From: Saccoglossus kowalevskii
Taxonomy: Eukaryota; Hemichordata; Enteropneusta; Harrimaniidae
NCBI RefSeq assembly: GCF_000003605.2
Contig: NW_003108090.1
Location: 183,645 to 205,239 of the forward strand
DNA: 21,595 nt
Reading direction: 5' to 3'
The translations under genes and the position numbers were made by a program. Under the pieces are notes generated by a model. It was not told where the DNA came from. It saw nothing but the letters and a program-made list of their open reading frames with translations, and did no database searches. This document shows, one piece after another, positions 1-21,595 of this stretch. Every line of letters begins with the position of its first letter. Positions within the stretch are counted from its first letter, which is position 1.

Positions 1-925
1 ATTTGAAATGGGGAGTGGGGTTATAAAAATGATGAGTGACTGTAGAAATGGACATTTGAAATGGCCACTTGAAATGGGAAGCAGGGTTATAGAAATGAAA
101 ATGGTTGTAGAAATGGACGTTTGGAATTGTCATTTGAAATGGGGAGTGGGGTTATAAAAATGATGAGTGACTGTAGAAATGGACATTTGAAATGGCCACT
201 TGAAATGGGAAGCAGGGTTATAGAAATGAAAATGGTTGTAGAAATGGACGTTTGGAATTGTCATTTGAAATGGAGAGTAGGGTTGTAGAAATGAGGAACG
301 GTTGTACAAATGGACATTGGGATTGGTTACTAAAATCAATCATAGAGACTGGTCACTAGAAAAGTAAATTGGATTGGTCATGAAAAATTAGACATCAAGA
401 CTGGTCTGTAGAAATAGCTATTGGAAATGATCACTAGAAAAGAACATTGGAAATGGTCACTAGAAATGGACATTGGGAATGATCACTAGAAATGGACATT
501 GGGAATGGCCACTTGAAATGGGAAGCAGGGTTATAGAAATGAAAATGGTTGTAAAAACGGACGTTTGGAAATTGTCATTTGAAATGGAGAGTGGGGTTGT
601 AGAAATGAGGAACGGTTGTACAAATGGACATTGGGATTGGTTACTAAAATCAATCATAGAGACTGGTCACTAGAAAAGTAAATTGGATTGGTCATGAAAA
701 ATTAGACATCAAGACTGGTCTGTAGAAATAGCTATTGGAAATGGTCACTAGAAAAGAACATTGGAAATGGTCACTAGAAAAGAACATTGGGAATGGTCAC
801 TAGAAAAGAACATTGGGAATGGTCACTAGAAAAGAGCATTGGGAATGGTCACTAGAAATGGACATTGGGAATGATCACTAGAAATGGACATTGGGAATGG
901 TCACTAGAAATGGACATTGAATCTA
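1..925. repeat. Minisatellite with 26-bp units and higher-order 131- and 314-bp repeats
   Basis: The 3' half is a clean 26-bp tandem array. Units of the form agaacattgggaatgg followed by tcactagaaa recur at 26-bp spacing (for example 785 to 811, 861 to 887). The 5' part shows higher-order structure: 1-131 is repeated almost perfectly from 132 and begins again at 263, and the block 263-576 is repeated from 577 (314 bp). Units vary by substitutions such as gatcac/ggtcac and aaaag/aaatgg. All open frames in this stretch, on either strand, arise from the repeat (NGHWEW- or ISNDN-like peptides). The array continues past the left edge of the window. Confidence 0.92.
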
Positions 926-2529
926 GAGTTTGGTCACTAGAAACCATGATAGACAAGAAATACATGTCATCCATTCACAACTACTATTGTATAAAAGTAA
1001 CACAAGGTGGTAACAACAGAACATCAGTATTCTCTTCTAGTATACACATTATATTAGTAATTCCACGACATCAACTCCATAGCATAAAATGACAAGACTT
1101 TCAACGAGTGATTAGCTTTACGTCTTTTCCAAAATACTCAAAGCTTGAACAGAATGATTAAGTAAATGTTTGGGTGATAAAACCAAATGATGCCTTTTTT
1201 TTTTGTTACAAAATCATAAATACACCAATTGACAATAAATTTTTGTTGATACTCTGATGACAATAAAAGACGTTATTTTCAGATATTTGCCCCAAATTGA
1301 ACATCAACAAAAATTACTGTTAATGATGGTCACCGGAATAGTTGTTCACGGTATGCAAGTACCTAAGTCCATTTCCATTCTAAAAGAACCTGCAAAAGAA
1401 ATTTTACTACCACCAAATGCTGCATTGTCATGTACCCCAAATATAAAACACGCATAAAGCCAAAAGAATGCATTGATTGTATACTGAATCATTGGAATAC
1501 ACCTTGATATTACCCTAGTCTGTGTCATTTATGTATTAGGCACATGTGTTGCATATGCAGTAATGTTGTCATCGCTTCTAAAATTGTTACATTGATTGGT
1601 ATAGGGAAAGCACTGTCATGGAAAAGTGCACATACTGATTTTCTAGAAAAGGTATTTTCACACAGTAACATTTTAGTTCTATTGTTTCTCATCAAATCTC
1701 GGCAAGAATCAGATTAGACTTTGAGAAAACAATACATGTAGTTAAAAGCATTGAAAATCTGCTTTTATTTATTTATTTATTCTGCAAAGTGAATTATTGT
1801 TGATCACTTGATGGCAACATTTTTTCAATTGAGAAAACATGAACCATTGCTGATATATCCCATTGGGAATTCACCTGATAAGAGACTCAATAGCAAGCTA
1901 ATTTAGACAATTTCCTCTCTTCTCCAACAGTAGACCTTTTGACAGCTCCCGAGTGTTTACATCATGACAGAATACACTGGAATTGACGAACCCTCACTAC
2001 GTGAACGCTATTACAGTTGACTTATCTAAATTGAACAGTGCCGATAAACTTCCCATCATTCAGCATCAGGAAATGTTCTTAATTGAAAAGTGAAGCTAAG
2101 AAATTGCCAAACGACCCAATAAGCGGTTTAGCTGACCCTCAATGCTATATTACAACGCTTCACTCAATGTTTGTACATAGAACACACAATTTTGATGTCA
2201 TTTCTCAGGTCTCACAACCATCAACAAAGAAAGATCTTATCTACTAAAATGTCTAATATAATTTATGAATGTGGTTTTTATCCATGCTTCCTATTAACCC
2301 TAGAGTTCACCTGTATATTGCTTAAACTTACAGACTCACCTGTCACGATTGCTTAATATCAACACCATATATACAAGTATCCTTATCTTATCTGTACTTA
2401 TTCTGTTTTCTAATTGATTTTCTCTTAGCAATCTTTCTGCTGACATGATGTTATCTTGTCAGTTTGCATTCTAGTGTATTATACAACACATGAGGATGTC
2501 AGACCCATCAAACTTCATCCTCCACAGAT

Positions 2530-2866
2530 CAGTCACATCGCCAACACACAAGTCACATTGTAAACATAACAGTCACATTGTCAATAAATAAGACACATCA
2601 CCAACATAACTAGGTCTCATCGCCAACACACAAGTCACATTGTAAACATAACAGTCACATTGTCAATAAATAAGACACATCACCAACATAACATAGGTCT
2701 CATTGTCAACACATAACAGTCACATTGTCAACACATAACAGTCACATTGTCAACACGTAACAGTCACATTGTCAACACATAACAGTCACATTGTCAACAC
2801 ATAACAGTCACATTGTCAACACATAACAGTCATATTGTCAACACATAACAGTCACATTGTCAACAA
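2530..2866. repeat. 22-bp minisatellite next to the E-protein exon donor
   Basis: The unit is cacattgtcaacacataaca plus gt. From 2705 to 2864 the word gtcaac occurs eight times at exact 22-bp spacing, with single changes (acgtaa, catatt). The left part (2539-2700) is an older, more diverged version containing an 82-bp duplication: the block starting cgccaacacacaagtcacat occurs at 2539 and again at 2621. The array ends about 45 bp from the splice donor of the exon at 2910, so it is the first thing in the following intron. Confidence 0.93.
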
Positions 2867-2909
2867 AATGCAGTCACCACTTAGCCCCAGAAAGTGCAAA
2901 AAAACTTAC

Positions 2910-3027
2910 CCATAAATGAAGACATACTACTATTATTAGAGTTCATATCATGGGAATATGACATATTATTATTAAGCTGCATTCGATTATCAGGCATATG
3001 ATCATTGTAAGATGAACCTTCATATCC
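2910..3027 (-). CDS. TCF4/TCF12: E-protein (class I bHLH, TCF3/4/12-Daughterless family) internal exon
   Basis: This is an internal coding exon of an E-protein, a nuclear transcription factor that binds E-boxes (CANNTG) as a homodimer or as the partner of tissue-specific bHLH proteins. On the minus strand an acceptor (ttttattttag) precedes GGATATGAAGG at 3027, and ATGG at 2910 is followed by a consensus donor GTAAGT. The exon is 118 nt, or 39 codons plus one base. It encodes GYEGSSYNDHMPDNRMQLNN, then NMSYSHDM, then NSNNSSMSSFM plus the first base of a codon (G). It enters in phase 0, matching the end of the exon at 10987, and leaves in phase 1. From memory, vertebrate E-proteins have RGFTDSPHYSDHLNDSR and then ...MNSNLMGK here, so the Y-x-DH-x-x-(D/S)-x-R core and the N/S/M-rich tail ending MG agree. 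The region is disordered, with no folded domain. The next coding exon should begin with two bases completing a Gly codon, and I do not find it in 1-2909. Confidence 0.85.
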
Positions 3028-3235
3028 CTAAAATAAAACATAAAATAGAAATTTAGTATGAATGTCATAATTCACATTAAAACAGAATCATGGGCCTGTC
3101 AGTATACAATAATGTGTAGTGTATATGCCAGTACTGTACATAAATGATCTATCATGTCTATTACTCCAAGGAATAATTCCATTGGTTAGTGTATCTAAAC
3201 ATTTTAGGCACAATCAGGCAGATAGTTCTGGATTT

Positions 3236-3600
3236 TATTATACACCATGTAATGTCACCGATGAGTCACATGTCCTGGATATCAGTATTATACACCATGT
3301 AATGTCACCGATGACAGTCACATGTCCTGGATATCTGTATTATACACCATGTCATGTCACCGATGACAGTCACATGTCCTGGATATCAGTATTATACACC
3401 ATGTAATGTCACTGATGACAGTCACATGTCCTGGATATCTGTGTTATACACCATGTAATGTCACCGATGACAGTCACATGTCCTGGATATCTGTATTATA
3501 CACCTTGTAATGTCACTGATGACAGTCACATGTCTTGGATATCAGTATTATACACGATGTAATAATGTCACCGATAACAGTCGCATGTCCTGGATATCTC
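3236..3600. repeat. 52-bp minisatellite upstream of the E-protein exon
   Basis: Seven units occur. The word tacacc (tacacg in the last) starts at 3241, 3291, 3343, 3395, 3447, 3499 and 3551, so the period is 52 bp, with a shorter first unit. Each unit reads tacaccatgtaatgtcac, cgatgacagtcacatgtcct, ggatatcagtatta, with few changes (ctgatg/ccgatg, cagt/ctgt). Inside the unit, tgtcaccgatgaca is a 5-bp inverted repeat, and cacatg is a CANNTG E-box. The array lies about 210 bp upstream of the acceptor at 3028, in the same intron. The short open frame across it on the plus strand (YYTPCNVTDDSHMSWIS repeats) is a repeat artefact. Confidence 0.94.
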
Positions 3601-4336
3601 TATGTTAGGAATTTCATAAAACTACTAGTTCTATACGCCAGAGTCAATTAAGCGTGCAAGACAGTGTACAAGCCAGGACAACTAATGACAATGGGGACCT
3701 CTTTATATATACACAGTATAGGACTAGAGGGGGTTAGTTAGTGTTACAAATAGCCTCTCACTTTCATAATTCTCTGACGTTTTACAGCAGAATTGACCAT
3801 GCTATCCAGTAACACAGAATGGATTCTATGCTTAGATAGCATGCATTACAGTAGACATTTCTTCAGTTGAACCATATATATGAAAAAGAATTTGATACAT
3901 TGGGAAAACCTCTCAATTGGTCAAACTGTTTGGTGTTAGGATTGGGTAGCCAATTGGGCACCATCTTCTCAGTAGCTTCGCTCTGACTCTAAAAAGTGAC
4001 ATGCAGCCATGGCTCACTAGACATATTATATTAAGCTAACAAGACAAATTGGTGTTCCCACCCAGCTTTCCTAGCTGACCACCTATTTTGTTAGGGGAAA
4101 CCCCAATTGAATTTTGAATTTAGATGACCTGTTTTTTAACCATTTAACAGTAATATAATTTTCTAACTAATAACAGCTGTAATACCTGCCTGGGGTGAAA
4201 TATTAAAACAAGTTATCAAGTCCAAGAAGTAGCTCTATTAGCAACCCAACTACATTTGTTTTTAATAGGATGTATTTTTTGTAGATCTTCTTAAAATATC
4301 AAGATATAAAATCTTACTTTTTCACCAATTGAAATG

Positions 4337-4687
4337 TTCACCAACATTAACCAAAGGGCGATGGATGACGTTTTGACAGTTTGGTATCTCCTAGTTTGAA
4401 AGATTTCTGAGAATTTGAATTTGTGATTCTCAAAATTAAAATGGTCACTTACATGCATATATTATATCGATCAATTTGAACCTAACATGCCCAAATTAAA
4501 TGTTTGTTTTTTTCACCAACATTAACCAAAGGGCGATTGGATGACGTTTTGACAGTTTGGTATCTCCTAGTTTGAAAGATTTCTGAGAATTTGAATTTGT
4601 GATTCTCAAAATTAAAATGGTCACTTACATGCATAAATTATATCGATCAATTTGAACCTAACATGCCCAAATTAAATGTTTGTTTTT
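4337..4687. repeat. Near-identical 175-bp tandem duplication
   Basis: The block beginning ttcaccaacattaaccaaag occurs at 4337 and again at 4512, and each copy runs to a T-rich tract. The copies differ by one inserted T (gatgg versus gattgg) and by atatatt versus ataaatt, with little else. This suggests a recent duplication. It lies in the intron between the two E-protein exons and contains no coding signal. Confidence 0.92.
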
Positions 4688-4850
4688 TTCCAAAATCAGT
4701 ATTTTCACTTGCATAAATTATATCACATGATCAATTTAAACCAATCATGCATTCATTAAATCTTTTTTTCCAAAAATCATGAAATAAAATCAGACTACAG
4801 TATTTTCACATGCATAAATTATATCACATGACCAAATAAACCAATCACAC
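4688..4850. repeat. Degenerate relatives of the preceding duplication
   Basis: Two further, diverged repeats follow the duplication. Their shared words are attttcac(t/a)tgcataaat and tatatcacatga, then caa and taaaccaatca, at about 4701 and about 4799. They resemble the end of the 175-bp unit (acttacatgcataaattata, tcgatcaatttgaacc). The region therefore seems to have grown by repeated local duplication, of which 4337-4687 is the latest round. Confidence 0.7.
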
Positions 4851-5457
4851 GTTGATAATCAGTATGGATTATAGGTTCTAAACATCAGATATTCGCTAAT
4901 CGGACATCAATTTCACACATCTAGACATGTACATTTGGACTTTATATTCCATACACAAACTTTTGTTTCCTTTTTACATTTAATGGATGAGTACTTTTGT
5001 GAGGAGATCAGGCTAAATGACTAGTTTCACCAATTTACACACTCGTTTTGATTCACAGCCAGCCTTCAATGAAAACTGTGACTTGCATATCATCTGATAA
5101 CATATTTTGAAGTACTGTACTTGAATACATATGGGGATTGCCATTTCATTTTACATTATATTTTACTTTCACAAGTTTCCTCTGAATAGTAATGAATGCT
5201 ACACAAAAAATCTGCTAAAAAAAGTGTTGATGCAATTCAATTTTATTGAAGTAACATATTCACTGGGTTTTAATTTCAGTAATCAGGAAATAATTAAGTT
5301 TGTTATAGTAATAATAATTTTTTTTTTAAATTAACTTTTCTCTAAAATATTATCTTTATAATTAATTCAGAATGTTAATTATTGTAAAGTTACAATGTTT
5401 CTGTAATAAATTGGCCCTCCACGAGCTTCAGAACGTTTCGGAGATGTATTTGTATGA

Positions 5458-5498
5458 ACCAATCAGAGAGCTACTATGGGTTTACACCAAGTGTAAAC
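5458..5498. promoter_or_regulatory. CCAAT box beside a perfect GTTTACAC/GTGTAAAC palindrome
   Basis: ACCAATCAGAG at 5458-5468 is a near-ideal NF-Y (CCAAT) site. Twelve bases later GTTTACAC (5480-5487), a CAA spacer and GTGTAAAC (5491-5498) form a perfect 8-bp inverted repeat, each arm containing a forkhead-like GTAAAC core. The cluster lies in the intron of the E-protein gene in a slightly GC-richer patch (5412-5600). It could mark an internal promoter or enhancer. No transcription start or coding exon can be assigned to it, so the function is inference. Confidence 0.35.
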
Positions 5499-8259
5499 AG
5501 GTTGTTCGTTTTGTTTAAAAGTAAAACAGTCACTGTGCAACACACCTTTAAATTTGCATAACTGTATTTTACGTGCGTTGCGTTGATTCAGAGAGACGAT
5601 TGTGAATTACAGATATAACAAGTCCTGGCTTCAGAAGTAACATAGTTGATTCTAAATTTTTATATATTTTCAGGTAAAGTATTAACTTTCAACAAATCCT
5701 ATTTTGCAATCTGTATAGCACAACGTCGTCAACGGCTATGTGAGTTATGCTGATACTGGTACAAGCGTGAATATATCTGATGGACAGAGCTGACAAACAA
5801 CTTTTCCGCTTTTTATTTGAATAGCAAAAAATGATTAATACCCTGGATGTGTTTTGATAGCAAACATACTAGATACAGCTAATTCAAATCACAAGACTTG
5901 CAATTAACACCAACATCGGTGATTTCAAGAAATATTTTTACAAAGCTGTTGATCAATTTATTTGTGATTTCACAAAAAAAAAGTATTTTGTACCTTTGGG
6001 CTAGAGTCTAAGTGACGTTTGTTTAATGGTGACCTTTGTGAATGCCCACGATTTATCAAATCGAAAAAATGTCCAGCATTTAAAATTTACTGATTTATAG
6101 TTATTTTGAGGTATCTCCCCAGACAAATGATCATAGGATAACAATCTTCTAAATGTTGTTACGATCATCAGGTTACAGACTAGACTCGCTAAAAACATAA
6201 TGTACATTTCCTTCTCGTTTACTGAATGACTCTGGGATAACGTAAATCTAAATTGCGCACTCATTTAAACAATATTTTATCTCAGTTCTGTCTTGAGATT
6301 TCTATACTTGCAGGGAAGATAATAGCAATATAAATGGAAATCGATGAGACACACATACACTTAGGACTTAGGAATAGAAGAACCATGTTCGTTTATGACA
6401 ACCCACCCTCAGCCAATCCCAAAAACCCTTCTTGCTGCCTCCATTCCTCTTCCATATAATGCTGATGTCAGAAAATCAACAAAGAATAACATGCACCTTA
6501 CATGCTTTGCATTGAATAAATAAAATATTAAGTATTATGAATTGGATGCAAAAAAAATAACATTTTTAGATTCTGGAATCAAATCAAGAAACTTTATCAC
6601 CAGGAAGGGCAAGATAGAGAAAGTTTGTCCTTAGTCAATTTCTATATCACCTTTTGCAACCAGAACGACTTTACTTGAATGCATAGTGTAACAAGATATC
6701 TAGCTGGACATTTCTCAGCGGCCATATATCTCATACTATAATACAACACTGATCTGCTCATAAAAATAACATTCATTTTTTATGTGTCCTCCATGGTTTC
6801 ACCGACTTAGGGAGCATATAGCTACTTGCTGTAAACTAGACATAATACTCATACTTCATACCACTGCAATGTTACTTGTTCATTTGCAGTGTAAATTACC
6901 ATCATACCAAACAGTGAGACTCTACCGCTCACTGCAACAGCGTCATGTTATACGAAAGCGTGAATTCTCCACGTTATTTTAATTGTATTAGTCACAGTAT
7001 GTTATAAGCAGCGATAAAACTATTCCACTACGAGCAGGGTTTCACTACAGCACAGCAGGTTTTCTTTTTTGCTTTGTATGATAGCATAACAACCGGAATT
7101 TCAAAACAGTGTATGAAAGAAGAGGATTAACCATACAGCAATAAATTCATGGGTTCAACATAAACAACGCAATTTTTATAAATTTTGATTGTTTTTAAAA
7201 ATCTATTTTTCCAGTCAACCTAATCCAACTACGTGAAGACACTTTTCGCAATCAAAATCGCATCCCAAATTGCATTTATATCACCTCCCAGCAATCGACA
7301 CCAAAGAAATTGTTGTTCATCGATTGGAGGAACACAAACACAATTTGACTGAAGGTCTTTGATGGCTACTTGATGAGATTAAAGTAAATTCCATTACATG
7401 CCTGTCGATCAGGTTATTGTTTGAAAAAAAAAAAAACACTTCATTTGCGGTCATCATTCTTAATCCGGCACACTTTGAGCAAACCACGTTATTCAGTCGT
7501 CTTCTGGTGAATTGAAAGCTATATCTATTGCAGGATGGCAGGTTAGGGATTATGTCGGATAAGCTCATGGTAGAAGAAAGAAGAGAGGCAGAGTTTGGGC
7601 AGGAAAAGATTTAAAGTTCAGTTAGGGAGAGAAGTGACGACGAATTATTCCTAATGATGAGCGCGCTTGGATAAACCATCTTTAAGGATTCATCCACATT
7701 ATTATTGTTGACATGCTCACAAATTGAAACCAACTTAACAAACACTACGAATTCTATAAAGCTCCTTTCAATCTTTCATCTAGTCTTTCAATATTTGCAT
7801 GTAATTTATTATTTCCCTGGGAAAAAAAATCGTTCTGGAAATAAATTGTAAGGAAACATAATAACCATGCAGGTTGTACAGAGAAAGGATGAAATTAAAA
7901 GCTCCATCTTTCCATTGATATCACAGCCTGTGTGTGTGCCTTGGGGCAAAGCAGAGAATTGAATTCGCTTGCCTTTCAATAGAAATATTGCCATTTTCAA
8001 ATGGAAGTCCTTTGTTAGTAGGTGATGGCAATATAGTATATATCTATACGACATTATCTCAGCAACCCAACACTTGGGAGAAACTATGATAACTGTCTCT
8101 ACAAATTCCAATACATTATTCAGTCTGCGCAGAAAGAGATGATTCTTTGATTATTTATTTGTGTAAAATTAGCATGTGTATTATGCGAATTCAATGTGTA
8201 TTTTGCCTTATTTAGTTATTTCAATGCCAACTTTTGTTATATTTCCACAAAATTAAACC

Positions 8260-8420
8260 TAAATAATATTTTTCAACATTTTTTTTATTGAATTTTGATT
8301 AAAACCAAATTGCAAATATTTTTTTTTTTTAAAGTCAAAATTTTTTTATAATTTTTGATGGAAAATTATTATTGTACCAGTGTTATGGTTTTTACAAAAA
8401 TTAGAATTTACAATAACATT
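8260..8420. repeat. A/T-rich low-complexity tract
   Basis: Long runs of T and A (including ten or more T near 8320) with almost no G or C. No coding potential and no clear periodicity. Confidence 0.7.
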
Positions 8421-9718
8421 GTTGATACTTTTGATAATCTGAGCCACTGAATATCAATTTAACAAGTGCCAAATCCGCAAAAATTAAATAGTTGCTATTT
8501 TAAATTATTTCAACAAATGTACAGTATTTTCTCTATTAGTATTGCTTATGTAAATTGGCAGAGGTGTCTGAGGCCAAAACAAGTCACATGTGTAAATTGA
8601 AGATGTGTTTGCATCACAGCAGATTCAGTAAGTATAAATGAAATCAACTTGTATTCAACAATTCTCCCACAATGCAATTCACTTCCTGTCACAGAAATAC
8701 TCATGTTTCTACATTTTTTGTTACAATCTACAAGTTTTGCTGTGCTCACTAAAATATCAGATTTATGGATCAGAACTTCAAGAATAATGTTGAGAGGAAG
8801 TCAAAAGAGCTAATGGTGGGGAAGTCCATCAATGTAAATAATACCCCCTAGATTTATAGGACTCTACCCAGGACCCCCTAAGATTTATTAAAAAATAAAT
8901 TTTCATTTTATCAGTGTATGTTCCAGTGCCAATATATCGACACTAAACTTTAATGTTATGACTGTGCAAGTGGGAAAAAATGCTTAAAACTTGTGATAAT
9001 ACCCAGAACACATCTTAAATGAACTGGTATGCTGTTTTTATTTTGTTTTAGACATAAAACTTAACTGCAACTATTAGAGGCATTATTAAATTTATTATCA
9101 AAACCTTAAAAAAAAAATCTCAAACAGCAAGTGATAGGAGTGTACAAGTTCATGCCAAGTGACATATTGAGTGTTTATCTAGTGTGCAACAAACTCAAAT
9201 CTCTAGCTTTGATTTATTTTACATTGGTTTATTAAAGAAGATATAAAACACTACAAGTTTCATTTCAGTGATATCCTGGCAGGCTCAGCCAATTACTTTT
9301 ATGGTGTACATGCATACCGTGAAGTACTTGGATAGACAACTTGATATACTCAAACCGTGTGTTAACTGCTGGGAAGTAGACCTACAAAACCCATGTCATT
9401 GATGTACTGGTGCATGCACCATAAGGTAAATATTACAAGAGATCTCAAATAATGCTACCACAGTCTCCCATACTTCAACAGTCATCTACGTTTGCAGCCG
9501 AATCAATGTTCACTACGGCAATCTTACAGTATTAATAGTCAATTTTACGTGTTAATTGTTCATGCACAGACTGTAGACGTGTAAGGTTACTACAGTTATT
9601 TTACCAGTGGAAATCATAGCACTCATATGGAATCCTTGGTAATGGTAGTTCCATGGAATCTACGTTCATCACAGGTACTCGAACTCGTACAGAATAGCAT
9701 ACAGAATGATATACTATG

Positions 9719-9751
9719 AGAATAGAATAGAATGGAATAGAATAGAATAGA
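9719..9751. repeat. (GAATA)n microsatellite
   Basis: Six to seven GAATA units in a row, one carrying a substitution (aatgg). It is a simple pentanucleotide repeat within the intron. Confidence 0.9.
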
Positions 9752-9753
9752 TA

Positions 9754-10158
9754 CTATGTGTACAGAGAGGTATCTAATATTCCTATGTTATCCATCAGCA
9801 ATTCTTCTCCAATAGAAGTGCATATGTAAACCAAAAAGGTCAGTTTAGTTGTTGTGAAACGAACTAACCCAATACTGTCACTGATTTGACAGGGTGTTTT
9901 AAATAACGCTTCCAATAAAGCAAATATGCCAATGATACTCCTATGTAATACCATGGCAGGTGTGCTATATGGACATCCCATAGTGAACAATATCAGATGT
10001 GTCACTGTGAGCTGCTCGTATACATATCTTTGTGTATTACATATAAACAGATGTTTGTGAAAACTACAATAAATTTGACGTCGGCATAGAAACAGGTTGC
10101 TAATTAACTGGGTCACATTCATGAATATCATCTGCTGAGTTGCAAATAGATTCAACAT
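9754..10158 (-). other. Longest open frame in the window (134 codons), probably not a gene
   Basis: An open frame on the minus strand starts with ATG at 10158. It encodes a rather hydrophobic peptide with scattered Cys and no domain, signal-peptide pattern or repeat that I recognise. A frame of this length is not surprising somewhere in about 21 kb of AT-rich DNA read in six frames. It lies inside the E-protein intron, on the same strand, directly beside a tandem array, and has no splice sites or promoter. I report it only because it is the longest frame. Confidence 0.12.
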
Positions 10159-10166
10159 AGTAATGA

Positions 10167-10531
10167 CAGTGAAACCTGTGTAAACTGAACACTGGCCAGT
10201 TTACAGAGGTATTTCATAAAGTGAAACCTGTGTAAACTGAAAAATGGCCACAGTTTACAGAGGTATTTCATACAGTGAAACCTGTTTAAACTGAAAAATG
10301 GCCACAGTTTACAGAGGTATTTCATACAGTGAAACCTGTTTAAACTGAACAATGGCCACAGTTTACAGAGGTATTTCATACAGTGAAACCTGTGTAAACT
10401 GAAAAATGGCCAGTTTACAGAGGCATTTCATATAGTGAAACCTGTGTAAACTAAACAATGGCCACAGTTTACAGAGGTATTTCATACAGTGAAACCTGTG
10501 TAAACTGAAAAATGGCCACGGTTTACAGAGG
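10167..10531. repeat. 54-bp tandem array with an internal hairpin in every unit (left part)
   Basis: Units starting cagtgaaacctg, tgtaaactga, acaatggccacagtttacag, aggtatttcata begin at 10167, 10219, 10273, 10327, 10381, 10433 and 10487. The spacing is 54 bp, or 52 bp where one CA is missing from the gccacag segment. Within each unit gtaaactg and cagtttac form an inverted repeat around a loop of about a dozen bases, so the array is a string of hairpins. The last unit here is cut at 10532 by a MITE. The related open frame on the minus strand (MKYLCKLWPF repeats) is a repeat artefact. Confidence 0.93.
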
Positions 10532-10533
10532 TA

Positions 10534-10741
10534 CTGTGGAATACTTTATTTTCGCTGGAATTAATTTTCGCTGAAAAGGCTTTTTGGGCGTTCTTTATGG
10601 AATTTATTTTCACTGATTTTTGATGAGTTGAATGTGAAATATAGGAAAAAAAGTATATTCGCTGGATTTTATTTTCACGGAATCATCCCTTCAGCGAAAA
10701 TAGCGGAAATAAATTCCAAGCGAAAATAAAGTATTCTACAG
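10534..10741. mobile_element. 208-bp MITE with long TIRs and a TA target duplication
   Basis: The element runs from CTGTGGAATACTTTATTTTC to GAAAATAAAGTATTCTACAG. Its ends are inverted repeats: the first 23 bases match with one difference, and similarity extends further (GGAATT.ATTT.CGCTG.. on both sides). TA lies on each side (10532-10533 and 10742-10743). Neighbouring repeat units read aggTAtttcata uninterrupted, so the target and its duplication are directly visible. The interior holds several TTTTCGCTG/TTTTCACTG motifs in both orientations and no coding sequence. A TA duplication suggests mobilisation by a Tc1/mariner-type transposase, though the superfamily is inferred. Confidence 0.9.
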
Positions 10742-10795
10742 TATTTCATACAGTGAAACCTGTGTAAACTGAACAATGGTCAGTGTATAATGGTT
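10742..10795. repeat. Final unit of the 54-bp hairpin array after the MITE
   Basis: TAtttcata at 10742 completes the unit interrupted by the MITE. One last unit follows (cagtgaaacctgtgtaaact at 10751), decaying after aatggtcagtg. It belongs to the array at 10167-10531. Confidence 0.88.
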
Positions 10796-10986
10796 TTACA
10801 TATAAATAATTTGGAGAAGAAACTGTACACATACTGTTTATATTTCAACAATATTCAGACACATTATAATGTGCAGTTTAAAATGAAATTTTATATTTAG
10901 ATCGTAGCAAAATCAACTAGCAGACTACCAAAAATGTAAACCACAAAAATGTTCGGGAGAACACAGGAAGCAAGAAGATTACTTAC

Positions 10987-11051
10987 CCGCGAGTCATAGC
11001 TAGGACTCGGGTGACTGTTAGAACCCCATGAACCCTGACCCTCTTCCATTC
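10987..11051 (-). CDS. TCF4/TCF12: E-protein (class I bHLH) internal exon with the SWG...PSPSYDSR motif
   Basis: This is a 65-nt coding exon of the same E-protein gene. The minus-strand acceptor is a T-rich tract ending ttattgcag at 11052, and the donor is CGCGG followed by GTAAGT at 10986. Two bases (GA) complete a codon begun in the previous exon. Twenty-one codons follow: MEEGQG then SWGSNSHPSPSYDSR. It ends in phase 0, so it reads directly into GYEGSSYNDHM of the exon at 3027. From memory, TCF4 has GSWGNGGHPSPS and TCF3/TCF12-type proteins have SWGTSGQPSPSYDSSRG at the same place. The SWG-x-x-x-(H/Q)-PSPSYDS-R match is what identifies the family. In vertebrates this segment follows AD1 (the LDFS helix) and its FSPPV extension. 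The ATG two bases after the acceptor could serve as a start if this were a first coding exon, but the acceptor signal argues it is internal. Confidence 0.87.
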
Positions 11052-12991
11052 CTGCAATAAAAAAAAAAAAAAGAATGGTAGCATTACATGTGGAATTACA
11101 GACAGTATTGGCAACTATTGATCATAATGCAATGTATTATAGATTGAAACCTATACTAGAGTATGAATTACAAGTTGCTTGTTCGTTGAAAATGTCAGAC
11201 TGATAACAAATATCATTGAAAACAGATCAACTTTGTTTCTGATGTACCCAAGTGATTTCAAAATACCGTAGATTATTAGTCTTGTTTGGATAAAAAGAAC
11301 TGCAAAGATAAGGTATTTCTTTTTTGTTTTTTTACAGGTGAAACAAATACTGTAGATGCATTAATTTAAAGATATTCTTGGAGCGAACATCCAGGCATTT
11401 TCTCCCAAAGGATGAAAACTCTCTGAAAACTGCACTGTAAAACTGCAGACTCCCTTGAATAGTGTAACAAGGATTACCCCTACGTGTGCAACATATATAA
11501 ATTTGGTTTCTCAGGATTACTTCAAAGTTGCATTTGTGCTGTTTGCTAACAGAGAGCCCATGGAAATACATGGTACAGTCGTGCATGTCTCAGTCTGTGA
11601 CGTAGCTTGGCCCCCAAAAAACAAACTTTTGTGAAACATCACGACTTGAAGTTTAAACTGCAAGAATGCTTATACAAATTCAAGGAAGCAAAACTTGATA
11701 ATTGTTATTGGGAATGTAACAACAATTGAGGTTGACTTATTTGGGATAAAATTTTTTAATATGACATAGGTCATACGACATCTAGACTATGAATAGTGCA
11801 ATGCAAGTATAAAGTCTGACAGGTCTATAGCGACTATGCAGTACATCAAAGTATTTGCAACTAAGGTTATGACCTCGTGGAGTCTGGATTAGAAAAGATC
11901 TACCAATGGCCAGTTCTAGCAAGCTAACAGATCAAGAGGATTAATAAACTGACCAATCACATCACAGGTACCATTATTTTGGTTTCTTTGATGTCATGAC
12001 AATCATCTAATACCGTTATACGAGGCCAATTTAGAGTTAGTGCAATAGTGAAAAGGAAATTTGATTTCAAACTGCCGTATTTTTTTATGACAAATGCTAA
12101 AATTTATGCGACTGTTTTGAATTCAAAGGGAGATTATTGACTAAAGACTGGACCTTACAATTACTCACTGATGCAAATTTGTTGAGATTGTCTTTTTGAC
12201 AAGTTTCAGGGTCATCTTGACACCTTTCCACAATGAAGGTGTGAAAATGAGTGTTTTATGACTAGTACTAAGTCAATGAATACTACTTAATATGGCTCCC
12301 ATTGAGAAGAAGCCACCCATGTTACAAGTATTCAGATTTGACCTTGTCAGATCTTCTCTTGTCTTTATTCCAGAATGAAGATAACTTCACACTGCTACCC
12401 CGCCTCGCCCAACTAAATCCCAACACCCTCAACCACATCCAGTTAGAGCTTTCTGCACCATATCAGATGAAGTCACTTTATATAACGTTCACTACAAATA
12501 CCCAAGAAAGTCAACTGGGACAACACCTTGTAATATGAGCTCAGAAAATACTAGCTTCATCTTGGGTCAGATTAAGCCCCAGCAACTCTCTTGGATTAAC
12601 TTGAGAGACACACTAAGAATAATACTGCAAAACCAGTCAATTACCATCAATATACATTTCCTGATGTGATTATTCAAAGAATCTTTGTGAAAACCAAAGT
12701 CCCTGCAAAAATTTGCTTGAAAGAGGCTCAAGCTGAATTTGAAATGATATTTCATTTTATGAATAATTTCACTATTATAGGATCATCAGGATGCTGAAAA
12801 ACAACAAGAATCGAAGTCACCAGAAAAATGTTCAAGGAATTGTTCCAAAATGTCTTGTGAAATTGTCAAATTTTGCCCTTTTGCACTTATTTCTATGGTC
12901 AAATTACTTCTTCATATCTAGAGATGTTGCTCAGTGACAAAAATGAAATAGTTTTGTATCAATATAGTCCCGATGAAGACAAAGATAATAT

Positions 12992-13047
12992 ACATGTCCA
13001 AACTTAAAATAAGAGAAATACATGTCCAAACTTAAAATAAGAGAAAT
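12992..13047. repeat. Two perfect 28-bp tandem copies
   Basis: The unit acatgtccaaacttaaaata plus agagaaat is present twice head to tail, at 12992 and 13020, with no differences. It is a simple recent duplication in the intron. Confidence 0.95.
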
Positions 13048-13762
13048 ACAGTAAAAACTTTTAAGTGCAGATGGTTGTAGCAAACTTCAGGGCAAATACG
13101 AGAATGATAAGTGTTGCTTGAGTACAGTTCAAAATTGTCTTTTATTTGCATTTAAATGAAGTCAAGTTCTGTGTTAAATTGGACCCCTATGACAAGTTGT
13201 TTTGAATAGAAGTTAACCATATGGTTTACTGAACAGACAAAGCCATGGTAGGGAGTGGTTGACAGTAAGTATTTCAGAAAGCCTCGGCTTTTATCAACTC
13301 CTTCAAAAGGCTTTAAGAAAATATTTTTATATATTTTCTGAAATGATAATGCTCAATTTTGAATCACTTTTTATTTTTCATGATGAGAAGCAAACTTTTC
13401 CTCTTTTCATAAATGAATTCTACCAGCACAATCCTAAAAGTTAACTTTTTCTGATTTCTTGAGCAAAGAGGGAAATGTAAACAAGAAATGGAAATACAGA
13501 GTGAAGTGTGTTCTGTAGTTACATTAGAAAGTGAACTGCTATTCATCACATAATTGAGAGTTTTGATAACTGAACTTTACTGAAGATTAAAGCCATAAAA
13601 CACCAAGATATGTGAGAGAATGAAACAAGACACCTATCAAAGCAGTCTAACCAATCATCAAGACCCTATCAGATTGTGCCTCTGTACAGGTCAAATCAAA
13701 TGACAACCCGATCTGGGTCACAAAGTAGCAGAAAATTGTGATCAAAAAAAAAATCTATATTC

Positions 13763-13779
13763 AATAAACCATGTTTATT
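13763..13779. repeat. Perfect 7-bp inverted repeat, AATAAAC-CAT-GTTTATT
   Basis: AATAAAC at 13763-13769, a CAT spacer and GTTTATT at 13773-13779 form a perfect palindrome in A/T-rich intron DNA. It may be coincidental at this base composition. Confidence 0.5.
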
Positions 13780-14572
13780 CCAAATGACTTGTTTTCCCGC
13801 CAAAATGTGTGTTGAAGATTTTATAAATTCCAAATGTTAATAACACATCCAACGGACACAACTTAAATGATGACTAACATTTTGGGGGGGGGTTCAAACA
13901 GTGACTATTGTAGGAAGTGAAAAAAGTTAACAAAACTAATGGATGGATGAATAAAAAAACTTACATTTTGCTATAGATGATTTCTATTTACATTATTAAT
14001 CTTCATTAATTGTTCCAACTTTCGCAAGTTATTTCTTGTATTTGTAAAAATTTAACAAGAAAAACACAAAACAAATAATATTTTTAAATTTTATACAAAA
14101 TTGTACTTTTCAGAAACATAAAAGGTATCTTCAATTTGTTGATAACTATTAAACACAGTTATAAATTGATTTTGATAAAACAAGTCTATCAGCCACTCTT
14201 TGTCCTCTCCTTGTTCCCCTCGACAATAAACATGCCAGAGACTTGGCATTATTTTTATTTATTAAAAGTAACATACCGACAACAGAGAGCAAAGATCAGA
14301 CAACTTTTTGCGTTGCTAGTTACCGCGTCAATGCTGCGTACTACATTCATTGGTCGCTCCCCCCTGAATCCATTCCATCCACCCACTAAATCTCACCATT
14401 GTTAGTTGCTGGGAGATGCAAAATCGGGATCTTTACGAACCAAAAAAATTGACACAGAGTACGTCTTTCCCAATGAGAGAAACAGGGCACAGGAAAACTG
14501 AGTAATTTATATAAATAAGCTAAAATTGCAAATAACAAAAATTCTAAATTCACATCCAATTGTTGAATTAAG

Positions 14573-14807
14573 TTTAATGAAACATTTTGCACACACAATA
14601 TGATTTTTCAAAAACAACATTTGTGGTGCAGTATTTGGTCTGTTTTCATGTATTTTTTTATTTTTTGAAGTCGAGTTTTTTGGATAAATGAACATAATTC
14701 CCTATTATTGATCAAAATTTTGAAACAATTACAAAAAAAAAAAAATTATATGGGTTTTAAAAAATTTGAATGGTGATAAGTCAACTTTGGTGCTAGAAAG
14801 GTTTAAA
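14573..14807 (+). mobile_element. MITE-like element, copy A (decayed left end)
   Basis: This copy shares an ordered series of words with the element at 16765-16983: (g/t)gtgca, then tttggtctgtttt or tttgtctgttttt, a T-rich core, gaacataat or gggcataat, atcaaaattttgaa or atcaaaactttgaa, and a right end of ggtgataag, caactttggtgct, then aaaggtttaaa. The right terminus is clear at 14807. The left terminus (tttaatga at 14573) is degraded. There is no coding capacity. Confidence 0.6.
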
Positions 14808-16764
14808 CACCAATTATAAAAAGTTCCCATCAGTGAAGAATCAGTATAAACCTGAATATGTAAAATGATTGAAACCCTACTGTGAACCCCTCCAATCAAT
14901 CCTCACTGCAACAGTAGATGCAAAGAATTCTGTTATCAGGACAAACAACTACACTGTCAACCAGCCTCTTCACCTAGTAAAGCTACCATGCTTTGCTATC
15001 AACAAAACAGTTAGCATTTAGATTGGGTTGGCTCATACACACACCAGGGCTGCCAAGCAAAAAGATCAAAGCACACAGTTCAGCTATCTCACGGTTTCCA
15101 CACATGAACATGGTTGAAACTTTGATATCAGTTTGTTTTTAAGCCATACTTCACAATCATCGTGATTTTGATTCTTTTGTTTAATCTTTTAAACATCAAC
15201 TCAACATTTATCAGTTACGATTATACCACACATAAACCTGCATCAATTAATTTAGATATTTTTTCTAAAATTTCGATTAGAATTTGTTGGATATGTGAAA
15301 TCACATTTGGTGTATAAGAAATTACAGTATTTATAAATTCCTAAATTTGCCAAATGATGCACCAACATTTTTGGGATTAAATTGTGGCATCTCAAAGCAT
15401 TTAAAAGTTTTGTTCTATATTACATATTAATATTAATTATGTGTTTTTGAGTTGAATACACAATAGTAATCTGTTAAAGATAGGAAGAACTACAAGAATA
15501 TGCATGTCATTTGAATTAATAGTATAACAAAAATTCAAAGCACATCTAATATTTCACGGAATGAATAATAATTTTTGCATGATCAAAACAACAACTTTTT
15601 TTCTGATTTCACAGCAAATGTGTTTTTTGGGAAGAAAATTGGCATTATCCGTACAATAAAAAATAATGCACCAGATAAACTGATCTAAAAACTCAATTCA
15701 CTCACCAATTGGCTTACATTTATACCACCACCCCCACCCCAGACAGCTGGTAAAACACTATCATTGGGAGCAAATGGTAGTAAATTAATGTAAAACAAAT
15801 TTATTAATTAAAACTGAACATTTAGTACTAACTTCTGATAACATCAAGTTATAGACCTTTACACAAAACGTGTGCAAGTACAGTGTGAGAAAATGTTCAA
15901 TGTTTTCATGGACACACAGTGGATTCCATGGTAGCCACGGTGGCAATGTCGGCCATATTGGATTGCAAGACAAACCAGTATGGTTTAAGTTCAGGACTGC
16001 AGTGAAACAACAATAGCCAGTATTCTGTTCAGTATATTAAACATAATCCAATCAAAATAATTACAAAGAGCTAAAAATTACAATAAAGCCAAACTATTTG
16101 AAAAATCTTGCTATTTTGTGAATTTTGCACATTTCAAGTTTACTGAACTTGAAATTTGTCAGAATTACAAAATAAACTTGACAACTTAAATACTGAAAAC
16201 ATTTTCGACCCACCCTAATTACTAGAAATGTCTCCTTTTTTTTTAATAAAATTCATCAGAATAACTGCAAAAAATCCAAACTAAAAAAAATGTAAAGAAA
16301 TATTGCATCTACTAGTATTTTTTTTTTTAAGATAAAAAAAGTTTGTTATCATTTGCATAGTTGCGTCCCCTACTAGCTATCTCTGCACATACTGTTGGAA
16401 TAGCTTGCTATCTCCACCACTCACTTCAAGCGTATTTACCCTGTCATTGTTTTGATTGTTCTCCAGATAGATTTGATAAATCAAGCTGAGGGGTAGAGTT
16501 GGAGTGAAGGAGGGTCAGAGTTTCACCCCACACGCCCATACCACGTTGAAAAGCAGTCGGCACGAGTAGAAAATCACAGCCTTCCAAATCACGAATTCAA
16601 AAACATTTTGGTCAAAGTTGGCATAATTTCAATATGCATAATGTTACACATTTCCTTCTATAAAATACCCTTCATAATTAAATTCTCATTTACCGCAAAA
16701 TAAACGGGCCGCATTAATTAAAAATTTAGCACATAGTGTTCAGTTTGTATTCACGTCTTCAATC

Positions 16765-16983
16765 TTTAACCCTGCAAGCACCATAATTTTTTTCGCCAAA
16801 ATTTTTGTGCAACATTTTGTCTGTTTTTAAATATTTTTATAAAACTGTTTTGTTCATTTCGGACTTAATGGGCATAATCTTCTCTTTGCTATTTATCAAA
16901 ACTTTGAAGAAGAAAAAGTTGAAAACATAACATTTTTATTTAGTGATAGGTAACCAAAGTTTACTTTCGTGCTCAAAGGATTG
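16765..16983 (+). mobile_element. MITE-like element, copy B
   Basis: A 219-bp element starts TTTAACCCTGCAAGCACC and ends GTGCTCAAAGGATTGA. The ends are imperfect inverted repeats (TTTAACCCT..(A/G)AGCAC). Its internal words match copy A (14573-14807) in the same order. It is A/T-rich and non-coding. The target duplication is not clear. Confidence 0.68.
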
Positions 16984-17212
16984 ATTTTAATGACTTTCAT
17001 ACAATTGCGCAAATTAAAAACAAAAAAACAGAAATTGACTTCAATTCTAATGCCAAAATAAACACATTTACAACACGCCTTTAGTAAGCAATAGTAAGCA
17101 CAAGTTTCTGTAAAAAAAATATTAAGCCGCCAAATTTAATCAGAAGGTTCCACGCAGGATAAATATAAAAACACAAATACAAAGACAGAGTTTAGAGGCT
17201 AATAGTATCCAG

Positions 17213-17254
17213 TTATGTCACTTTAAGTCAAGTTTATGTCACTTTAAGTCAAGT
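17213..17254. repeat. Two 21-bp tandem copies
   Basis: The unit ttatgtcactttaagtcaag plus t is repeated exactly at 17213 and 17234. It is a short recent duplication. Confidence 0.93.
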
Positions 17255-17335
17255 CGGTTTATTTAAAATCTAAAATATTTGGTCAACGAAGCACAGTGCA
17301 TTGCCGTGTCCATCAAACATAGAGACAACCAATCC

Positions 17336-17460
17336 GGGGGCATAGCTCAGTTGTCAAGAACTTGTATAAGGGGGCAAATTTCCAATTTTGGGGAGTTGGG
17401 TACTTTGGCATAACAAGCAAAGGAAATAAGCCTCCTTATGCTATATATATATATATATAT
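17336..17460 (+). mobile_element. Possible tRNA-derived SINE remnant (A-box head, (AT)n tail)
   Basis: GGGGGCATAGCTCAGTTG at about 17336 closely resembles the 5' end of tRNA-Ala (GGGGG-ATAGCTCAGTGG) and includes an A-box-like TAGCTCAGTTG. No acceptable B box (GTTCGANNCC) follows, and the body does not fold as a tRNA, so it is not a functional tRNA gene. The segment ends in a simple (AT)n run at 17442-17460, as many SINEs do. No flanking target duplication is evident. The resemblance covers only about 18 bases, so this is a guess from the combination of head and tail. Confidence 0.35.
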
Positions 17461-18068
17461 GGTTCAATACGAAGCCATACTTAAAATGTGTATATTAGAT
17501 TGTTATAATGTAAACAGCGATGCCAGAATTTGGAATCAGACGATGTCAGTGATTTCATGTGGCGCTACACAAAACATACCTTGTGTATGCAAACCACTCA
17601 AAAGGATGGCACGGCCAAGCACAAAAGTTTGACATTTTACAAAAGAACCTGGGTTGAAAATAAAAAGTTAATTTGTCGGCAGCTGACAAGAGCACGTTTG
17701 TTCTTAGTATTAAAAGTGAATTGGTCATTCACAAAATGTCACCTTCAAAGTATGAATACACAGGGACATGTGAAAACCAAACAAAGAAACCACACTCCAA
17801 AGTTTCTGCCTCGCAGTAATGGGTAAAACAATGGGTGGAAATTGATTAAAACTCTACCATGCGGTGAGATGCCGAGACTATCGGGGAAATAACTGCAAAT
17901 CTCAGGGAAACTGACCCTTCCTGAAAAGCCATAATCAACAGATCAGGCCAGATGTGTTTTCAAACAATGACACCATCACCATCTTTCTTAAAGTGAGTAA
18001 ACTTAGATCAACTCATTCACCCCTTCTAGGAATCTCATGAGAAACAACGCTAACATGCCGAAGCTTAC

Positions 18069-18114
18069 CTCGGTAGTAATATGCTGGTATTCCTGGACGC
18101 ATGTCTGATTTCAT
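18069..18114 (-). CDS. TCF4/TCF12: Candidate alternative first coding exon of the E-protein gene
   Basis: On the minus strand, ATG at 18114 opens MKSDMRPGIPAYYYR and one further base, then a consensus donor (CCGAG followed by GTAAGC) at 18068. The exon leaves in phase 1. The exon at 11051 begins with the two bases GA, so the junction codon is GGA (Gly) and the joined product reads ...AYYYRGMEEGQGSWG. The frame stays open upstream for about 21 codons to a TAA, with another in-frame ATG 15 nt earlier, so the true start could be MCLLLMKSD. It is known that vertebrate TCF4 and TCF12 use many alternative 5' exons that give different N-termini, some lacking AD1; this exon would be such a case. I do not recognise the peptide itself. 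The alternatives are a chance donor next to a short open frame, or an exon of another transcript. No TATA or clear promoter element is visible just upstream. Confidence 0.5.
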
Positions 18115-18452
18115 AAGTAATAGGCACATGGCATGCAGAATGAATTTCCAGTTAAAAAGATCACGATTTGCGCACAGCCATTATCACAATACAACATGAA
18201 TGAACTGACCACAGATCACTGTCAGATGACCCCCTAAGTGACTTATATTGAACACTATGGCTGCTAAGTAAAAAAGAGGATTGTACATTTATAGAGTATC
18301 ATTGGAAGAGCTGGCAACATAAATCAAGAAAAGAATCTTGGGGAGAAAGGCCAACTTTTAAAAATTAATCATAAACTGAAACAAAAAAATCAGTTCAAAG
18401 AGCAAAAGAAGGTCAACCAAGGAAGGTTTCAAGTTGCACTGCAAATGAAAGG

Positions 18453-18484
18453 GTGTAAACTGTCCATACCCTTATAGTTTACAC
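18453..18484. repeat. Inverted repeat GTGTAAACT ... AGTTTACAC
   Basis: A perfect 9-bp stem (18453-18461 with 18476-18484) around a 14-base spacer. The arm sequence is the same GTGTAAAC(T) word that makes the hairpins at 5480-5498 and in the array at 10167-10795. Confidence 0.75.
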
Positions 18485-18489
18485 TCTCA

Positions 18490-18665
18490 GGAGACATGTT
18501 TTTTTTTGTTTGTTTTTTAAAGTTTAAAACTTTTTTAAAATTTGTCTTAAAAGTTTGACTAAAAAAAATAGTGGTTTTAAATTTTTAGAATTATGGTCTA
18601 CTGTTGTAAAATTTAAATTAAAAAAAAAATTAAAATGTGGTCTTTTTTTCTTGTTTTTTTTTAAT
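18490..18665. repeat. A/T low-complexity tract
   Basis: Runs of T and A up to about nine or ten bases, with almost no other signal. No coding potential. Confidence 0.75.
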
Positions 18666-19220
18666 TTTTCTGCACATCATGACATAACTGACCAAGTCAA
18701 AAACAGTGAGAGAAAAACATAATAAAACAAACATTTAGTCATTAAATGACAGACAGGAGGATGACCCATCAAAAAAATAGTGCAACTTTTGGCTGATATG
18801 AATAGTCACCACATGGCGAAGACAGATCAAAACAAATACATATTGGAATTTAAAACAGTGTACAAGACATGGCTATCATACAAACACAGAACACATGCGA
18901 TCACACTACATGAAATCTACTAGCAGACAGAAAATAAATAAATATCATAACAGCAACTCCAAAAGTTTTTTTTTTTTTTGTGGTAGATTGATTTTAAATT
19001 CAGCTTATTTTAGGCAGTTATTTTATTTTTCGGATTAATTTAATAGTTTGAGGATTAATTTTTAAGTTCATTGACAAATTTTTACGAGTCACATAAAATT
19101 GTAAATTTGTAGTAGTGAAAATTTAACAACGGTCCATTGCGAAGTTACGGTGACATTTAGACATACATGTGAATAACCATCATTACAAAATCAAATGACA
19201 AAAAGTTCCAGGAGTGAAAA

Positions 19221-19460
19221 TTGAACAATTTGAGAGTCAATGTCAACTTTTGGCACCATCTACAAAAGTATTGTATACAGCTTCTCCCCACATGAAATGT
19301 TTGATAAAAATTTACAAAACTTTTGATCAAAAACTAAAAACAATACCGGAAACTGTACCATCTAAAAAGACGATGAAATTTAGTGAAAAATTTCCCAAAA
19401 TGTGAAAAAATTTGCACTAAATTTTACGCAGGAAAAATACATGGTACTGAAGGGGTTAAA
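19221..19460 (-). mobile_element. MITE-like element, copy D (minus orientation)
   Basis: Read on the minus strand it begins TTTAACCCCTTCAGTACC at 19460. It ends with GGTGCCAAAAGTTGACATTG and a terminal stretch which, read on the plus strand, is TTGAACAATTTGAGAGTCAA at 19221. Both ends resemble the TTTAACCC(T)TTGAG(A/C).. ends of the copies at 16765 and 20081, and the interior shares atcaaaagttttg. It is about 240 bp. The short plus-strand open frame inside is incidental. Confidence 0.62.
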
Positions 19461-19913
19461 TGAGTGAAAACATTAAGCAGCTAAAAGTATTAGAATGATA
19501 TCACAAGACATAGACACTGGCAATTAATGCAGAAATTGGAAATAAGAATCTTTCAGCGGAGTAGGGATTCTGGGCTTCCCACAGACAAGAAAATTAGCAG
19601 CTTGTTGCCAATCAGACGCAACAGCCTAACAAATCAGTGTTCATAATGAGCCATGGTGAGCCATGAATTACCAGCCAGGACACCTTTCATATTTACTACG
19701 TCTTCCAGTTAACATGTAATACGACTATCAGATTCAGCTGTTGTTGTCATTTGGCGGTTTTCTTGATCCGATGTTCGATCACCTACAAGTTTAATGTTTT
19801 ATTCCCAAAATATCTCAATATAGGGGTCACATGACGAAAGGCAAGTAATCATTGAAAAACAATCACCACACAATCAGACAATTACTGTTCATCACTTTTT
19901 TCCACTGTAATTT

Positions 19914-19927
19914 ATTTCAGCTGAAAT
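19914..19927. promoter_or_regulatory. 14-bp perfect palindrome centred on a CAGCTG E-box
   Basis: ATTTCAGCTGAAAT is a perfect palindrome whose centre is CAGCTG, a core bound by E-protein dimers. It lies about 1.8 kb upstream of the candidate first exon. That it is a binding site is inference; a single CAGCTG is common by chance. Confidence 0.3.
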
Positions 19928-20080
19928 CAGCTTGCTGATGTTTGGGAGTTGGGAGTAATATCTTTGCCAAAAATACAGTTTTATTTTCACCGATTTCTTT
20001 CCACTGGACTGTATTTTTCTAAAGAGAAAATAAATTCCTTTTCTTACCAGGGAGATATTTCTTACTGCTTATATAGTTCC

Positions 20081-20288
20081 TTAACCCGTAGAATGTCATT
20101 ATTCTTCATGCCAAAATGTAGTGCAAAGTTCAGCACTTTTTTTTTTTTAAATATATAAGTTTTTTTTTTAACAGTTTCTTTGTTAATTTTGGACCAAATA
20201 GGTCTAGATGAAAACTTTTGACAGAATAATGCAGGCAGGTTAATTTCAATGGCAACGACAAAAGTTTACTTCAACATTCAAAGGGTTA
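20081..20288 (+). mobile_element. MITE-like element, copy C
   Basis: It starts TTAACCCGTAGAATGTC and ends ACATTCAAAGGGTTAG, so the ends are inverted repeats (TAACCC.T.GAATGT). The interior contains the family words aatgtagtgcaaag, an A/T core and aaaagtttacttcaa near the right end, matching copies at 14573 and 16765. It is non-coding. Confidence 0.68.
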
Positions 20289-20577
20289 GTCCTTGTCAGA
20301 TAAAAACAATTTGAATGAGAAGACTACACTATATAAATTTCAGATACCCAAAGATTACCATCAAGCATTAAAATATTCAACATCCATTTCTCATCTCTTA
20401 GTCAGTGCAGTATTTGTCATCCTCACTGTTCCACAGTACTGGAGTGATTGTTATTCTCATATGTCTCGGCAAAAAATGCAAATCTCAACAAACCCCATTG
20501 TTATCACTAAAACACCTGCCATGGATACCACCCCCTCCATGCATCTCTGGATCAGTTGCTATGGCAACAGCTTCTTT

Positions 20578-21562: not shown

Positions 21563-21595
21563 AAATAATGCAGCGTGTTTGGTCGCTAAGCTATA

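What the first reader, a model, noticed from the sequence alone, without database searches (positions are those of the whole stretch)
2910..11051. E-protein (TCF3/4/12-Daughterless) gene recognisable from two tiny exons 8 kb apart
The exons at 11051-10987 and 3027-2910 have consensus splice sites and join exactly in frame (R, then G). They read MEEGQG-SWGSNSHPSPSYDSR-GYEGSSYNDHMPDNR. This matches the conserved PSPSYDS-R...Y.DH...R segment of vertebrate E-proteins as I recall it. Neither exon is visible as a long reading frame, so ORF-based annotation would miss the gene.
Basis: partly seen in the sequence, partly recalled or inferred. Interest (0 to 1): 0.7.

Follow-up and report, generated by a model that had tools for sequence, protein, structure and literature searches.

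The report
Two exons of animal E-protein gene
This stretch of what is most likely animal DNA holds two small exons of an ordinary, widely conserved gene for an E-protein, a transcription factor that helps control cell development; it is a normal gene fragment and not a new kind of system.

Summary
On the minus strand, 11051-10987 and 3027-2910 are flanked by good splice sites and join in frame. By splice score alone, exon A ranks 1st and exon B 9th of 7,708 open candidate exon frames. Nearly full-length human TCF12 (recalled) against all six frames gives these exons as its two best hits, E 0.003 and 0.012, next 4.5; none of 300 shuffled windows reaches either score. A profile of three E-proteins, one from the PDB (E2A, 8ubk_P), again ranks them first and second. 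Exon A's boundaries (phase 1 in, phase 0 out, last codon Arg) match human TCF4 introns at c.145/146 and c.207/208, read from variant names in papers. So this is part of the N-terminal activation region of an E-protein gene (TCF3/TCF4/TCF12/Daughterless family) in an animal I could not name. The bHLH and LDFS motif were not found in the window, and no RNA data were available. Missing short exons in an ORF scan is normal for animal genes. Real but ordinary.

The parts
10987..11051 (-). Exon A, 65 nt, phase 1 at its 5' end and phase 0 at its 3' end: (split codon)-MEEGQGSWGSNSHPSPSYDSR; counterpart of human TCF4 c.146-207 (62 nt)
   Evidence: Sequence and translation; splice score rank 1 of 7,708 candidate exon frames; best six-frame hit of TCF12, TCF4 and E2A in the window; profile hit 1; boundaries match human TCF4 c.145/146 and c.207/208
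2910..3027 (-). Exon B, 118 nt, phase 0 at its 5' end and phase 1 at its 3' end: GYEGSSYNDHMPDNRMQLNNNMSYSHDMNSNNSSMSSFM-(split codon); counterpart of the human TCF4 exon that begins at c.208
   Evidence: Sequence and translation; rank 9 of 7,708 candidate exon frames; second-best six-frame hit of TCF12, running 8 bases past the donor; profile hit 2
3028..10986 (-). Intron between exons A and B, 7,959 nt, GT-AG, with tandem repeats inside
   Evidence: Splice sites read; repeats; only noise-level E-protein hits inside
11052..21595 (-). Inferred upstream intron (at least 10.5 kb of it); the preceding exons, expected to encode LDFS and MF-PP, were not found in the window
   Evidence: Only noise-level hits to residues 1-48 of the E-proteins; inference
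1..2909 (-). Inferred downstream intron (at least 2.9 kb of it), with tandem repeats at 1-919 and 2523-2865
   Evidence: Repeats; only noise-level hits to downstream E-protein segments; inference

Best explanation
[quoted passage not shown] TCF3/TCF4/TCF12 in vertebrates, Daughterless in flies) of an unidentified animal. Transcription runs along the minus strand, and an 8.0 kb GT-AG intron is removed to join the two exons. Together they encode about 60 residues of the N-terminal activation region, just after the LDFS-type AD1 helix. The gene most likely works as E-proteins do: the bHLH, encoded outside the window, dimerises with itself or with tissue-specific bHLH partners and binds CANNTG E-boxes, while the N-terminal region recruits co-activators. 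Shown here: the exons, splice sites, frame, similarity, and exon A's intron phases. Inferred: splicing in the living cell, the rest of the gene, and its function.
For: Consensus splice sites and exact frame joining. A and B rank 1 and 9 of 7,708 candidate exon frames by splice score alone. The two best of the six-frame TCF12 hits are these exons in collinear order, 30.4 and 28.5 bits, next 20.0; the best of 300 shuffled windows is 25.8 bits. The joined peptide scores 114 against TCF12 and 78 against TCF4, with 0 of 500 peptide shuffles reaching the observed score in each case, and 62 against PDB E2A, with 1 of 2,000 reaching it. A three-sequence profile ranks them 1st and 2nd of 1,613 open pieces of 8 residues or more (E 0.0012 and 0.012; next 5.4; best reversed decoy 5.1). 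Human TCF4 has introns at c.145/146 (phase 1) and c.207/208 (phase 0, after Arg69), bracketing a 62-nt exon aligned with the 65-nt exon A. TCF4's AD1 is encoded by its exons 3-6 (PMC3137626).
Against: No bHLH or LDFS motif was found in the window, and the joined peptide has no Pfam family. The human TCF12 and TCF4 letters were recalled, although several residues agree with published positions; TCF12 agrees only with an offset of 23, where I would expect 24 from the isoform lengths as I recall them. Exon B is the weaker part: TCF4 hits it only out of place (residues 250-283, 19.2 bits, noise level), TCF12 hits it a second time out of place (262-297, 18.5 bits), and its TCF12 hit runs 8 bases past the donor; its second half aligns poorly. 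Against database E2A alone, exon A is top at 23.5 bits, but 1 of 300 shuffled windows reaches 24.3, and exon B is not among the four hits kept. The passage giving c.146 does not name its transcript. No related locus in the viral or prokaryote collections, as expected for an animal gene. No expression data.
Confidence: 0.94

Rival explanations
1. The exons belong to an unrelated Ser/Pro/Gly-rich protein that resembles E-proteins by composition.
For: The segment is short, of low complexity in part, and has no Pfam family; the two PDB matches to the joined peptide itself are irrelevant and weak, E 0.1 and 0.12; exon B also gives out-of-place noise-level hits to TCF12 and TCF4.
Against: Two separate exons are the top two hits, in collinear order, to one protein; shuffled peptides and windows do not reproduce it; both intron phases of exon A match human TCF4.
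Confidence: 0.03
2. A non-functional remnant (pseudogene or partial duplicate) of an E-protein gene.
For: Only two exons are seen in 21.6 kb, and the surroundings are rich in tandem repeats.
Against: Frame, splice sites and intron are intact, so it is not a processed copy. Long 5' introns are normal in this family: the human TCF4 gene spans 437 kb, and one named variant lies 23.6 kb before c.146.
Confidence: 0.02
3. Chance: two open stretches with fortuitous splice sites.
For: The window holds 7,708 open candidate exon frames, so some will look good.
Against: The splice ranking and the homology ranking were obtained separately and agree on the same two stretches; 0 of 300 shuffled windows reach either TCF12 hit.
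Confidence: 0.01

Closest known systems
TCF12 (HEB), vertebrate E-protein
   Same: SWG...PSPSYDS-RG....Y.DH..D.R in the same order, 48% identity over the segment (TCF12 letters recalled); highest-scoring of the three tested
   Different: Four residues shorter in the aligned part up to DNR, and six longer in the Asn/Ser/Met-rich end of exon B
TCF4 (E2-2 / ITF2), vertebrate E-protein
   Same: GSWG..HPSPS...Y..DHM (letters recalled); exon A boundaries and phases match c.145/146 and c.207/208
   Different: TCF4 lacks the YDS residues after PSPS; exon A is 65 nt, the human exon 62 nt
TCF3 (E2A), PDB 8ubk_P
   Same: GLEDRPSSGSWGSS...S.D.SR.Y, 38% identity over the segment, from a database sequence
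   Different: TCF3 lacks the PSPSYDS motif and the DH..D.R segment
Drosophila Daughterless
   Same: Named in papers as the fly's only E-protein (abstract, passage)
   Different: Not compared: no Daughterless sequence was used here

Membership tests
E-protein (class I bHLH: TCF3/TCF4/TCF12/Daughterless) | C-terminal bHLH domain (Pfam HLH) | not testable with these tools
   Not seen in the window: none of the 12 listed window hits of recalled TCF12 lies in its bHLH part. The rest of the gene could not be reached: the search of the window's own assembly did not complete nine times
E-protein (class I bHLH: TCF3/TCF4/TCF12/Daughterless) | AD1 helix with LDFS motif, exon upstream of exon A | tested here: inconclusive
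   Not found in 11052-21595 above noise, but the upstream intron may be longer than the window
E-protein (class I bHLH: TCF3/TCF4/TCF12/Daughterless) | Conserved N-terminal segment after AD1 (SWG...PSPSYDS-R...Y.DH...R) | tested here: met
   two of the three reference proteins were recalled
E-protein (class I bHLH: TCF3/TCF4/TCF12/Daughterless) | Conserved intron positions and phases around that segment (phase 1, then phase 0 after Arg) | tested here: met
   Human TCF4 positions from variant names in PMC3668172 (transcript not named in the passage) and PMC11101122 (ENST00000354452), mapped on recalled TCF4 checked at Y148, A315 and G316. One human gene only. The 3' boundary of exon B (phase 1) could not be checked: one paper search gave no position that I could use
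E-protein (class I bHLH: TCF3/TCF4/TCF12/Daughterless) | Spliced transcript across 10987/3027 | not testable with these tools
   No RNA reads available

The most novel reading that the evidence does not exclude
The long introns could hide lineage-specific alternative first exons of the kind described for human TCF4, and the Asn/Ser/Met-rich end of exon B could be a lineage-specific expansion of the activation region. Nothing here shows either.
Probability: 0.1. Interest if true: 0.25.

Novelty: new member of a known kind. Interest (0 to 1): 0.12.

Why it matters
It implies that the window is animal nuclear DNA and identifies the gene it crosses. The conserved intron phases and the PSPSYDS segment would be a useful anchor for annotating E-protein genes in poorly annotated animals. 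It raises no new biology by itself.

Tried and rejected
Pfam and PDB searches with the joined 60-residue peptide gave nothing useful. IMG/VR scans with the peptide and with the four-row alignment, and a GTDB genome scan with the alignment, matched 6, 9 and 16 stretches by pattern but confirmed none. The plasmid collection has no near match to the window. No RNA family reached its gathering score and no tRNA was found. The ten longest of the 14 ORFs of 70 aa or more have no Pfam match above the curated cut-off; three have sub-threshold matches, E 0.1 to 0.3. A 27-nt candidate exon at 1389-1363 (minus), in phase with exon B by eye, was rejected by eye because it does not resemble the KTSERGSF segment expected from recalled TCF12 and its donor (gtactt) looks weak. 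Candidate exons near 17648, 18260 and 16485 (minus) score well as splice pairs; the one at 18260 overlaps a TCF12 hit of 18.9 bits, which is noise level, and I found nothing better there. One paper search for the literal motif PSPSYDS found nothing. Three searches for further human exon boundaries and two for E-protein evolution or lophotrochozoan E-proteins gave nothing that I used; I saw passages of PMC8199221 and did not use them.

Full report
What is there. On the minus strand of the window, 11051-10987 reads as 65 nt preceded by a T-rich tract ending ttgcag and followed by gtaagt. Its frame is two bases of a split codon and then MEEGQGSWGSNSHPSPSYDSR. 3027-2910 reads as 118 nt preceded by ttattttag and followed by gtaagt. 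It translates as GYEGSSYNDHMPDNRMQLNNNMSYSHDMNSNNSSMSSFM plus one base. The first exon ends and the second begins on a codon boundary, so the join is R|G, and the intron is 7,959 nt. The M sits behind a split codon, so it is read as internal and not as a start.

Is it more than chance? Two tests, made separately, point to the same two stretches. First, splice sites: with an approximate consensus matrix (recalled, vertebrate-like) the exon A acceptor ranks 2 of 2,165 and its donor 2 of 2,481 over both strands, and those of exon B rank 46 and 12. Of 7,708 open candidate internal exon frames of 40-250 nt on both strands, A ranks 1 (tied with its own second open frame) and B ranks 9, the sixth distinct place. 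The hits run slightly over the exon edges, by 4 bases before exon A and 8 bases after exon B. In 300 dinucleotide-shuffled windows the best TCF12 hit was 25.8 bits and none reached 28.5. TCF4 (recalled, first 409 residues) has exon A as its best hit, 26.9 bits, against a best of 26.2 in 300 shuffled windows. TCF4 does not hit exon B at the expected place; it hits it only at residues 250-283, 19.2 bits, and TCF12 hits it a second time at 262-297, 18.5 bits. Both are noise-level hits that show how far Asn/Ser composition alone carries.

Checks on the recalled references. In recalled TCF4, residues 148 and 316 are Y and G, as in the construct boundaries of PMC3137626 (passages), and the printed stretch around 316 has A at 315, as in the variant Ala315Val of PMC11101122 (passages; residues). 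In recalled TCF12, the block that PMC12034182 gives as Gln421-Met489, 69 residues (section 10 read), is found as Q...M with length 69, and G491 and S583 fall in place with an offset of 23. I would expect an offset of 24 from isoform lengths as I recall them, so my TCF12 may hold one residue too many. The first 125 residues of recalled TCF12 match a deposited E-protein, PDB 8ubk_P 'Transcription factor E2-alpha', at E 5.8e-28 over residues 3-124. Using those deposited E2A letters, the joined peptide scores 62, reached by 1 of 2,000 shuffled peptides. In the six-frame search exon A is the top hit at 23.5 bits, but 1 of 300 shuffled windows reaches 24.3, and exon B is not among the four hits kept. 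The E2A test alone is therefore suggestive, not decisive. A profile of the N-terminal parts of the three E-proteins ranks exon A first (E 0.0012) and exon B second (E 0.012) of 1,613 open pieces of 8 residues or more; the next is 5.4 and the best reversed decoy 5.1.

Intron positions. Papers give human TCF4 variants c.146-23634T>G and c.146-17653T>A (PMC3668172, one passage; the passage does not name the transcript) and c.207+13A>G on ENST00000354452 (PMC11101122, passages). Taking both on the same coding sequence, the human gene has introns before c.146 (phase 1) and after c.207 (phase 0). On recalled TCF4 these fall in codon 49 (N, followed by V-E-D-R) and after codon 69 (R). Exon A has two bases of a split codon followed by M-E-E-G, and ends after R: same phases, same aligned places, 65 nt against 62 nt. 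This evidence does not depend on similarity scores, though it does depend on the recalled TCF4 letters. For exon B the 5' boundary (phase 0) matches; its 3' boundary (phase 1) could not be checked, because one search of papers gave no position that I could use (listing only).

What it is and how it works. [quoted passage not shown] Names differ between papers: PMC11101122 calls the domain that only the longer isoforms carry AD3 (passages). By the intron match, exon A is probably the counterpart of TCF4 exon 5 and exon B of exon 6; this numbering is my inference. The window therefore crosses the part of an E-protein gene just after the LDFS exon. The rest of the mechanism (dimerisation with other bHLH proteins, binding to CANNTG, recruitment of co-activators through AD1) is established for the family and is inferred here. 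I found no bHLH or LDFS exon in the window. Long introns at this end are normal for the family: human TCF4 spans 437 kb. With three references I cannot say whether this is a single pre-duplication E-protein or one of the vertebrate paralogues. TCF12 scores highest of the three (48, 41 and 38% identity for TCF12, TCF4 and E2A), but two of the three references were recalled and no invertebrate sequence was at hand.

Source organism. Not identified. The window is about 34% G+C with many minisatellite-like arrays, no Rfam family at its gathering score and no tRNA, and no Pfam domain above cut-off in the ten longest of 14 ORFs. Scans of viral and prokaryote collections found no relative. The search of the window's own assembly did not complete in nine attempts. 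Animal DNA is inferred from the gene itself.

Verdict. Observation confirmed; interpretation supported. The finding is an ordinary member of a well-known gene family. The point that ORF scans miss it is true of short animal exons in general.

Noticed in passing
window 1-936: Dense complex of related tandem repeats (units of 13, 26, 65, 131 and 314 nt), at the end of the window.
   Followed up: no
window 2523-2865: About 16 copies of a 22-nt unit with higher-order 82-nt units, beginning only about 45 nt beyond the donor of exon B.
   Followed up: no
window 3236-3603: Seven copies of a 52-nt unit, 91% matches, inside the 8 kb intron some 200 nt before exon B.
   Followed up: no
window 4337-4690: Two tandem copies of a 176-nt unit, 98% matches, so probably a recent duplication.
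   Followed up: no
window 10166-10533, with one stray copy at 10741-10804: About seven copies of a 54-nt unit (92% matches) some 450 nt beyond exon A, plus a separated copy. The repeat makes a 75-aa repetitive ORF at 10152-10379 minus that I take for no gene.
   Followed up: no
window 17648, 18260, 16485 (minus) and 9893 (plus): Open stretches with good splice-site pairs by consensus score and no E-protein similarity above noise; possibly alternative exons, probably chance.
   Followed up: partly
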